This document shows, in pieces, positions 30,704 through 31,657 of a stretch of DNA of 56,289 nt (position 1 is the first letter of the stretch; every line of letters starts with the position of its first letter). A model generated the notes under the pieces. The model saw only the letters and a list, made by a program, of their open reading frames with translations. It had not been told where the DNA came from and did not search any database. The DNA lies in the NCBI GenBank assembly GCA_019746105.1, contig JAIESK010000078.1, positions 1-56,289 on the forward strand. Reading direction: 5' to 3'. Made by a program: the position numbers and the translations under genes. The DNA is from Alphaproteobacteria bacterium. GTDB lineage: Bacteria; Pseudomonadota; Alphaproteobacteria; UBA9655.

Positions 30704-31657
30704 CTATATGTATATCTCCTGCGTTTTCATAAAATTATTAATCTCTTCAAGATTAAAGAATTGATAAGAATCAATTTTATCTTGAGTGATGCGTCGCATC
30801 TGAAAAAATGTCTCTGGACTTGCATCAAATTTTTGAGTTACCCTTTTAAATTGATTGATATCCCCTTCAAGATCTTCTTCCGTGCAGAATGTACGAAGGG
30901 CTTCAGCTTCAAGAGTCTCTATAGGCTGTGGACCCATTCCATAAGTTGTGCCAAAACCAAGATATTCATTTTGGTCTGTACAAAATACATTCTCACCTTG
31001 CGCATTTCCGTGAGGTTTAAAGACATCATACATAAGAATATTAGTAATATAAGTGATTGATCCAGGAATGGCTTTACCTTTTACCGTCGTTAAAAATTGT
31101 AAGGGTAATTCATGGAAAAATTGTTCTACGGTCCAATCTTCTCGCGTTGCTAATAACTTATAAAAGCAAGTGGTATAAAGATTAAAATGCTCTTCTCCCA
31201 GAATTTCTCTGAGACAAAAAATTTTAGCGGTTGTAAGAGCAATTTTACATTCTACACTAGCTGGCTTTGCAATTAAATCTTCAAGAGCGCCTATGAGATT
31301 CACAGGAGAAGCTTTTAAAACAAGAGTAGGAACTCTTGCTTCTTGTTTCATTCCGTCAACAAAAGTTAAGCCATCTATCCATAGAGGATCCCACATTGTC
31401 GATTCAGCAGACATTTTCATCCCCTTTCCCGGAGGAACATAGGTCCAATTGGCATTAATTTTTGCATAAACTCTTTTCGTTGTGGAACTGACAACATTGT
31501 TGATGTCAGATTGAGTCTCTAGAACAGGTCTTAAGGAAGAGGTTATAATAGGTAGGTCTGATTCGTCATCCATTGCCAGAACTGCAGAGGATGAATGAGC
31601 AACTAAGGAAACAAGAGAGGTTGCTAAAAATAACTTTTTTCTTAAGAACTTTTTCAT
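30704..31657 (-). CDS. Secreted Bacillus-Tgl-like transglutaminase
   Basis: 317 aa with a signal peptide (cleavage near AVLA-MDDESD). The core resembles Bacillus protein-glutamine gamma-glutamyltransferase (Tgl), recalled from memory rather than searched. ASVECKIA (E136, C137) followed by a helix and LGEEHFN matches the Tgl FECATA...GEDKFN segment that holds the nucleophilic Cys. MYDVFKPHGNAQGENV (E222) and EYLGFGTTYG match the later Tgl DP..A..GENV...YFAHGLGI segment. Enzymes of this family cross-link glutamine and lysine side chains. Tgl makes spore coats, but this protein is Sec-exported from a Gram-negative, so a host-directed or envelope role is likely (inference). Confidence 0.7.
   Translation of the reverse strand: MKKFLRKKLFLATSLVSLVAHSSSAVLAMDDESDLPIITSSLRPVLETQSDINNVVSSTTKRVYAKINANWTYVPPGKGMKMSAESTMWDPLWIDGLTFVDGMKQEARVPTLVLKASPVNLIGALEDLIAKPASVECKIALTTAKIFCLREILGEEHFNLYTTCFYKLLATREDWTVEQFFHELPLQFLTTVKGKAIPGSITYITNILMYDVFKPHGNAQGENVFCTDQNEYLGFGTTYGMGPQPIETLEAEALRTFCTEEDLEGDINQFKRVTQKFDASPETFFQMRRITQDKIDSYQFFNLEEINNFMKTQEIYI

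What the first reader, a model, noticed from the sequence alone, without database searches (positions are those of the whole stretch)
30704..31657. Secreted Tgl-like transglutaminase in a Gram-negative, probably host-associated bacterium
E136-C137 in ASVECKIA, the following LGEEHFN, and QGENV (E222) with EYLGFGTTYG match by eye the catalytic segments of Bacillus spore-coat transglutaminase, with an added Sec signal peptide. Secreted protein cross-linkers or deamidases are strong candidates for effectors; this family is not commonly discussed outside spore formers.
Basis: partly seen in the sequence, partly recalled or inferred. Interest (0 to 1): 0.75.

Follow-up and report, generated by a model that had tools for sequence, protein, structure and literature searches.

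The report
Exported Tgl-like enzyme in intracellular bacterium
The gene encodes an exported, distant relative of the enzyme that cross-links Bacillus spore coats, and it belongs to a previously unlinked family that is spread, in one to several copies, through small-genome, ATP-importing (probably intracellular) Alphaproteobacteria, where it may modify host or envelope proteins.

Summary
In detail: window 30704-31657 (-) is an intact 317-aa ORF with a signal-peptide-like N-terminus, E136-C137 and E222. Single-sequence evidence for Tgl is weak (Pfam TGL 19.9 bits, cut-off 23.7). A profile of 34 relatives finds B. subtilis Tgl (4P8I, E 1.5e-7) and 7C9J (2.6e-5) and nothing else in the PDB; hhalign gives 97.5% (score 82; best of 299 shuffles 29). 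So it is a remote Tgl homologue. Cys137 (33 of 35 rows) and an acid before it, at the position of Glu115 that B. subtilis Tgl needs, are kept. The family is in 20 of 42 genomes of one alphaproteobacterial order and in several other families, sometimes in several copies, mostly with signal peptides; 22 of 25 carriers encode ATP/ADP translocases, none of 5 comparison genomes does. Likely an exported Cys acyltransferase (cross-linker or deamidase), plausibly a host-directed effector. Activity, export route and target are untested; AlphaFold models failed (pLDDT 33 and 38). New variant of a known kind.

The parts
30704..31657 (-). Exported Tgl-like protein, 317 aa
   Evidence: Intact ORF; relatives; family profile hits Tgl in the PDB
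31574..31657 (-). Predicted signal peptide, residues 1-28 (cleavage after AVLA is a guess)
   Evidence: Sequence; hydrophobic N-terminus also in nearly all complete relatives
31391..31393 (-). Trp89, most conserved column of the family; aligns with Tgl Trp82
   Evidence: Conservation rank 1 of 258 columns; hhalign
31250..31252 (-). Glu136, aligns with Tgl Glu115 (E or D in 31 of 35 rows)
   Evidence: Tgl E115A has no activity (PMC6490927)
31247..31249 (-). Cys137, presumed nucleophile, aligns with Tgl Cys116 (33 of 35 rows)
   Evidence: Conservation rank 2 of 258
31049..31051 (-). Tyr203, aligns with Tgl Tyr171, a residue at the glutamine-substrate entrance of the tunnel
   Evidence: Y in 29 of 36; Tgl Y171A has no detectable activity on BSA (PMC6490927)
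30992..30994 (-). Glu222, aligns with Tgl Glu187 but variable in the family (19 E, 5 D of 36)
   Evidence: conservation rank 56
30989..30991 (-). Asn223, aligns with Tgl Asn188 (N in 31 of 36)
   Evidence: Conservation rank 5
30953..30955 (-). Phe235, in the place of Tgl His200 (F in 31 of 36, no His)
   Evidence: same 13-residue spacing from the Glu as in Tgl

Best explanation
The protein is an exported, highly divergent member of the Tgl branch of papain-like thiol enzymes. It leaves the cytoplasm by its signal peptide (inferred from sequence). Cys137 attacks the side-chain amide of a glutamine and forms an acyl-enzyme, helped by the acid just before it, Glu136 (inferred from alignment to Tgl Cys116/Glu115). 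The acyl group then goes to a lysine amine (cross-link) or to water (deamidation). Loss of the His200 equivalent and variation at the Glu187 position suggest that the amine side and substrate range differ from spore-coat Tgl. It belongs to an expanded, fast-diverging family of exported proteins in small-genome, ATP-importing Alphaproteobacteria, and most likely acts outside the bacterial cell on host proteins. Shown here: remote homology, conservation of the Cys-acid pair, N-terminal signals, distribution. Inferred: catalysis, cross-linking or deamidation, delivery to the host.
For: Homology: hmmsearch of the PDB with the 34-row family profile returns 4P8I (1.5e-7) and 7C9J (2.6e-5), next hit 2.4; hhalign 97.5%, E 7.6e-12, score 82.3 against at most 29.0 for shuffles and 16.3 for the reversed template; PF20085 found in 8 of 34 members at E of 0.1 or less, best 7.4e-10. 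Active site: C137 ranks 2 of 258 columns in a family with mean column identity of 15%; acid before it in 31 of 35. Tgl E115A and C116A inactive, E187A about 60% (PMC6490927). Export: hydrophobic N-terminal signals in 30 of 36 rows by a simple threshold, most of the rest being fragments or just below it. Lifestyle: three ATP/ADP translocases in the own genome, and in 22 of 25 carriers against 0 of 5 comparison genomes. Expansion: 20 of 42 genomes of one order, several copies in some, tandem pairs. Purifying selection in one close pair, dN 0.14, dS 0.47.
Against: No activity, localisation or substrate data. His200, needed in Tgl, is Phe. Two members lack the Cys (G001 Ser, G166a Thr), so some copies are not enzymes of this kind. 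AlphaFold models are too poor to place residues. No outer-membrane export route could be tied to it: the own genome's two secretins are a Flp/Tad pilus type and an unassigned one. The genes sit alone among housekeeping genes with no recurrent partner. The distribution fits a surface or periplasmic role too.
Confidence: 0.52

Rival explanations
1. Envelope enzyme: the protein stays in the periplasm or on the cell surface and cross-links the bacterium's own envelope proteins, as Tgl does in the spore coat, hardening the intracellular or transmission form.
For: Signal peptide without known outer-membrane export route; the known job of Tgl is to weld the cell's own coat (PMC6490927).
Against: Patchy presence (5 of 15 genomes of the own genus), several divergent copies in some genomes and split copies fit a conflict-type gene better than an envelope housekeeping gene.
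Confidence: 0.22
2. Same fold, other chemistry: with His200 gone and Glu187 variable, the family hydrolyses peptide, isopeptide or cell-wall bonds as NlpC/P60-like relatives do, rather than transferring acyl groups.
For: TGL is grouped with NlpC/P60, CHAP and amidases among papain-like enzymes (PMC10318531); Phe at the His200 position in nearly all members.
Against: NlpC/P60-type proteases and amidases use a Cys-His pair (general knowledge) and no His column is conserved at the aligned place here; the closest solved structures are the two transglutaminases; the Cys-Glu pair is kept.
Confidence: 0.18
3. Pseudoenzyme: the fold is used for binding (host or bacterial partners) and the Cys is structural or a relic.
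For: Two members without the Cys and with a non-acid before it (G001, G166a); Cys226 is also common (21 of 36), so a disulphide in an exported protein is possible.
Against: C137 is the second most conserved of 258 columns; Cys and acid are lost together in the same two members, as for a functional pair, although two further members keep the Cys and lack the acid.
Confidence: 0.06
4. Chance resemblance to Tgl.
For: Single-sequence score under Pfam's cut-off; the first 7-row profile did not find Tgl in the PDB.
Confidence: 0.02

Closest known systems
Bacillus subtilis spore-coat transglutaminase Tgl (PDB 4P8I/4PA5; Pfam PF20085; NCBIfam NF002869)
   Same: Trp82, Glu115-Cys116, Tyr171, Asn188 equivalents kept; order and rough spacing of the segments; one small catalytic core.
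   Different: Signal peptide; His200 replaced by Phe; Glu187 position variable in the family; Trp184 not kept; Cys-to-Glu187 spacing 85 instead of 71 residues; extra C-terminal region; no sporulation; single-sequence score below curated cut-offs.
Cytosolic PF20085 proteins of other Pseudomonadota (L027, L028, L029)
   Same: Same Pfam family, over the cut-off; Cys kept; segments in the same order.
   Different: No signal peptide seen; FSCYRA (Ser before the Cys) and GYEGSW/GFEGSW (Glu187 kept), the opposite pattern to the window family; carriers lack ATP/ADP translocases.
Cytosolic PF20085-like protein in a 6.3-Mb alphaproteobacterium (L070, 754-2292)
   Same: ECAGAF keeps the Glu-Cys pair; PGDYMYFKN; longer loop before the GxN motif as in the window family; Leu at the Glu187 place and Leu at the His200 place (by eye).
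   Different: No signal peptide seen, longer protein, large genome without ATP/ADP translocase.

Membership tests
Pfam TGL PF20085 / NCBIfam NF002869 | Curated model score reached | tested here: not met
   Window protein 19.9 bits (cut-off 23.7) and 13 bits (cut-off 307); best of 34 relatives E 7.4e-10, its bit score was not shown
Tgl superfamily (remote homology) | Profile homology to solved Tgl over the core | tested here: met
B. subtilis-type Tgl | Catalytic Cys116 | tested here: met
   C137; 33 of 35 rows
B. subtilis-type Tgl | Glu115 before the Cys | tested here: met
   E136; E 20, D 11 of 35
B. subtilis-type Tgl | Glu187 | tested here: inconclusive
   Present in the window protein (E222) but D, S, N, Y in the nearest relatives; 24 of 36 acidic overall
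B. subtilis-type Tgl | His200 | tested here: not met
   F235; no His at this column in 36 rows
B. subtilis-type Tgl | Tunnel residues Tyr171 and Asn188 | tested here: met
   Y203 and N223
B. subtilis-type Tgl | Papain-like fold with active site in a tunnel | tested here: inconclusive
   AlphaFold models pLDDT 32.7 and 38.0; no fold search run on them
B. subtilis-type Tgl | Gln-Lys cross-linking activity | not testable with these tools
   Needs an assay
Secreted effector of an intracellular bacterium | Export signal | tested here: met
   Signal-peptide-like N-terminus, by hydropathy only
Secreted effector of an intracellular bacterium | Carried by host-dependent bacteria | tested here: met
   ATP/ADP translocase in 22 of 25 carriers, 0 of 5 comparison genomes; a proxy for host dependence
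Secreted effector of an intracellular bacterium | Delivery into the host and a host target | not testable with these tools
   No data

The most novel reading that the evidence does not exclude
A multi-copy family of host-directed protein cross-linkers or glutamine deamidases, evolved from the Tgl lineage, is a main effector class of protist-associated intracellular Alphaproteobacteria, working with a Cys116/Glu115-type pair alone and without Tgl's His200.
Probability: 0.35. Interest if true: 0.82.

Novelty: new variant of a known kind. Interest (0 to 1): 0.56.

Why it matters
Effectors of Holosporales-like symbionts are almost unknown; a 2025 review calls the mechanisms of host interaction poorly understood and names no effector in the passages I read (PMC11909080). 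A family of exported proteins with a recognisable catalytic Cys and a clear biochemical prediction gives a testable handle. It also puts the redundancy of Glu115 and Glu187 seen in B. subtilis Tgl into an evolutionary setting: this family keeps Glu115 and lets Glu187 drift, whereas the cytosolic proteobacterial TGL proteins seen here keep Glu187 and lose Glu115.

Tried and rejected
phmmer of the window protein against the PDB: nothing. A 7-row profile against the PDB: only chance hits; it took the wider family to reach Tgl. Plasmids, phages and viral contigs: no relatives. Conserved gene neighbourhood: none. The neighbour 29902-30582 has no homologue near the other members examined. Secretins as a sign of a type II system: not specific; Flp/Tad type and unassigned type in the own genome. 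Literature: no paper with both transglutaminase and Holosporales. The weak hit in G065 and the hit in G297 cover only the N-terminal part of the profile and were left out.

Full report
OBSERVATION. The window holds one intact ORF at 30704-31657 on the minus strand, 317 aa, ATG start. The N-terminus (KKFLRKK, then LFLATSLVSLVA, then small residues) looks like a Sec signal peptide. This rests on sequence and hydropathy only.

IS IT TGL? The window sequence alone gives a marginal answer. Pfam TGL PF20085 scores 19.9 bits, E 4.9e-4, under its curated cut-off of 23.7, over residues 135-251. NCBIfam NF002869 gives 13 bits. phmmer against the PDB finds nothing. I therefore collected relatives: six from the genus, the family and a named MAG, Alphaproteobacteria bacterium 16-39-46, more from the class, and then a large set from one order. 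The 34-row profile A3 (mean column identity 15%) was run against all 177,635 distinct PDB sequences. It returned B. subtilis Tgl 4P8I at 1.5e-7 and a second transglutaminase, 7C9J, at 2.6e-5, and then only noise at 2.4. This search was not told what to find. Profile-profile alignment of the family with three Bacillales Tgl sequences gives 97.5% probability and E 7.6e-12 over 135 columns. Its score of 82.3 compares with a maximum of 29.0 over 299 column-shuffled templates and 16.3 for the reversed template. PF20085 matches 8 of 34 members individually at E of 0.1 or less, best 7.4e-10. Remote homology is settled.

RESIDUES. The aligned pairs (window, Tgl) are W89/W82, E136/E115, C137/C116, Y203/Y171, E222/E187, N223/N188 and F235/H200; the last three have identical spacing in both proteins. 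Tgl numbering was checked on the 4P8I sequence. In the 36-row alignment, C137 is Cys in 33 of 35 rows and the residue before it is Glu or Asp in 31 of 35. Y203 is Tyr in 29 of 36, N223 is Asn in 31, and F235 is Phe in 31 and never His. E222 is Glu in 19 and Asp in 5. By conservation W89 and C137 rank first and second of 258 columns, N223 fifth, E222 fifty-sixth. In the nearest relatives E222 is D, S, N or Y although the Cys is kept. In B. subtilis, C116A, E115A and H200A have no detectable activity, E187A keeps about 60%, Y171A has none on BSA and N188A only residual activity (PMC6490927). So the family keeps the more important of the two Glu residues and two front-side (Gln-substrate) residues, and has replaced His200, which lies at the Lys-substrate entrance. 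This favours a Gln-directed thiol enzyme whose acceptor side has changed. Two members (G001 and G166a) have lost both the Cys and the acid and may be pseudoenzymes.

STRUCTURE. AlphaFold gave pLDDT 32.7 for the single sequence and 38.0 with the one relative I could hand in. These models were not used for any conclusion.

FAMILY AND CARRIERS. In the own genus 5 of 15 genomes have a member. In the order of G342, 20 of 42 genomes do, in eight genera, with several copies in some. G762 has adjacent tandem copies. Several copies are split by stops or frame changes (G793, G785, G791 second copy, the G770 C13 pair), although assembly error cannot be excluded in draft genomes. Over an even sample of 385 genomes of the class, the strong hits are all in genomes of 2.3 Mb or less, and an even sample of 398 genomes of the phylum has only the window genome. 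ATP/ADP translocase PF03219 is found three times in the own genome and in 22 of 25 carriers, but in none of five genomes with other TGL-like proteins or weak hits. Carriers are therefore probably obligate intracellular bacteria. Placement in or near the Holosporales is my inference; the tools give class Alphaproteobacteria only (G149, in the same class as the window genome, carries the same gene as the named MAG). The gene tree groups members from different families with good support (for example G009b with G791a, and G249 with G764), which means old paralogy or transfer. One close pair shows purifying selection (dN 0.14, dS 0.47). Genes stand between unrelated housekeeping genes with no recurrent partner. 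In the window the neighbours are aspS, rnd, a small secreted protein, a SanA/ElyC-like protein, rseP and bamA (aspS by its sequence).

OTHER TGL PROTEINS IN PSEUDOMONADOTA. Ordinary PF20085 proteins over the cut-off occur in 3 of 398 sampled genomes. They look cytosolic and read FSCYRA and GYEGSW or GFEGSW, which keeps Glu187 and loses Glu115, the reverse of the window family. A cytosolic protein in a 6.3-Mb alphaproteobacterium keeps ECAGAF but has GLN in place of GEN. The two acids of the Tgl dyad thus seem to have been kept alternately in different branches; this is an observation on few sequences.

MECHANISM. Most likely: export through Sec, acyl-enzyme formation on Cys137 with Glu136 as base, transfer to an amine or water, on proteins outside the bacterial cytoplasm. 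I favour host targets because of the patchy, multi-copy, fast-diverging pattern in host-dependent bacteria. An envelope role remains a real rival, and hydrolytic chemistry is another. The Holosporales review names the type VI secretion system as the likeliest host-interaction machine (PMC11909080); a Sec-exported protein would not be expected to use it, so the outer-membrane step is open.

NOVELTY. No paper in the library holds both 'transglutaminase' and 'Holosporales'. TGL is described as a papain-like family with the spore-coat enzyme as its example (PMC10318531). I rate this a new variant of a known kind: an exported, expanded branch with an altered active site.

Noticed in passing
window 29902-30582 (-): Adjacent 226-aa exported protein with no Pfam match; its mature N-terminus (HAMDEEGDEQ) resembles that of the Tgl-like protein (LAMDDESD), but there is no other similarity and no homologue near the other family members examined.
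   Followed up: partly
window 29902-30582, 30704-31657, 50089-52203; L013, L014, L015: Several unrelated exported proteins of this genus share 'AM' plus acidic residues just after the signal peptide, perhaps a lineage-specific cleavage or sorting preference.
   Followed up: partly
window 52278-53288 (+): Protein with a signal-peptide-like N-terminus matching phytase (PF02333, E 2.9e-62), unusual for an ATP-importing bacterium.
   Followed up: no
window 50089-52203 (+): 704-aa exported protein without any Pfam match, rich in charged residues after the signal peptide.
   Followed up: no
L013 9309-12557 (+): In G001 the Tgl-like domain, without its Cys, is the N-terminal part of a protein of about 1,080 aa of unknown function.
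   Followed up: no
L085 5515-10614: Flp/Tad pilus genes (RcpC/CpaB, secretin, CpaE-like, T2SSE-type ATPase) in the window's own genome.
   Followed up: no
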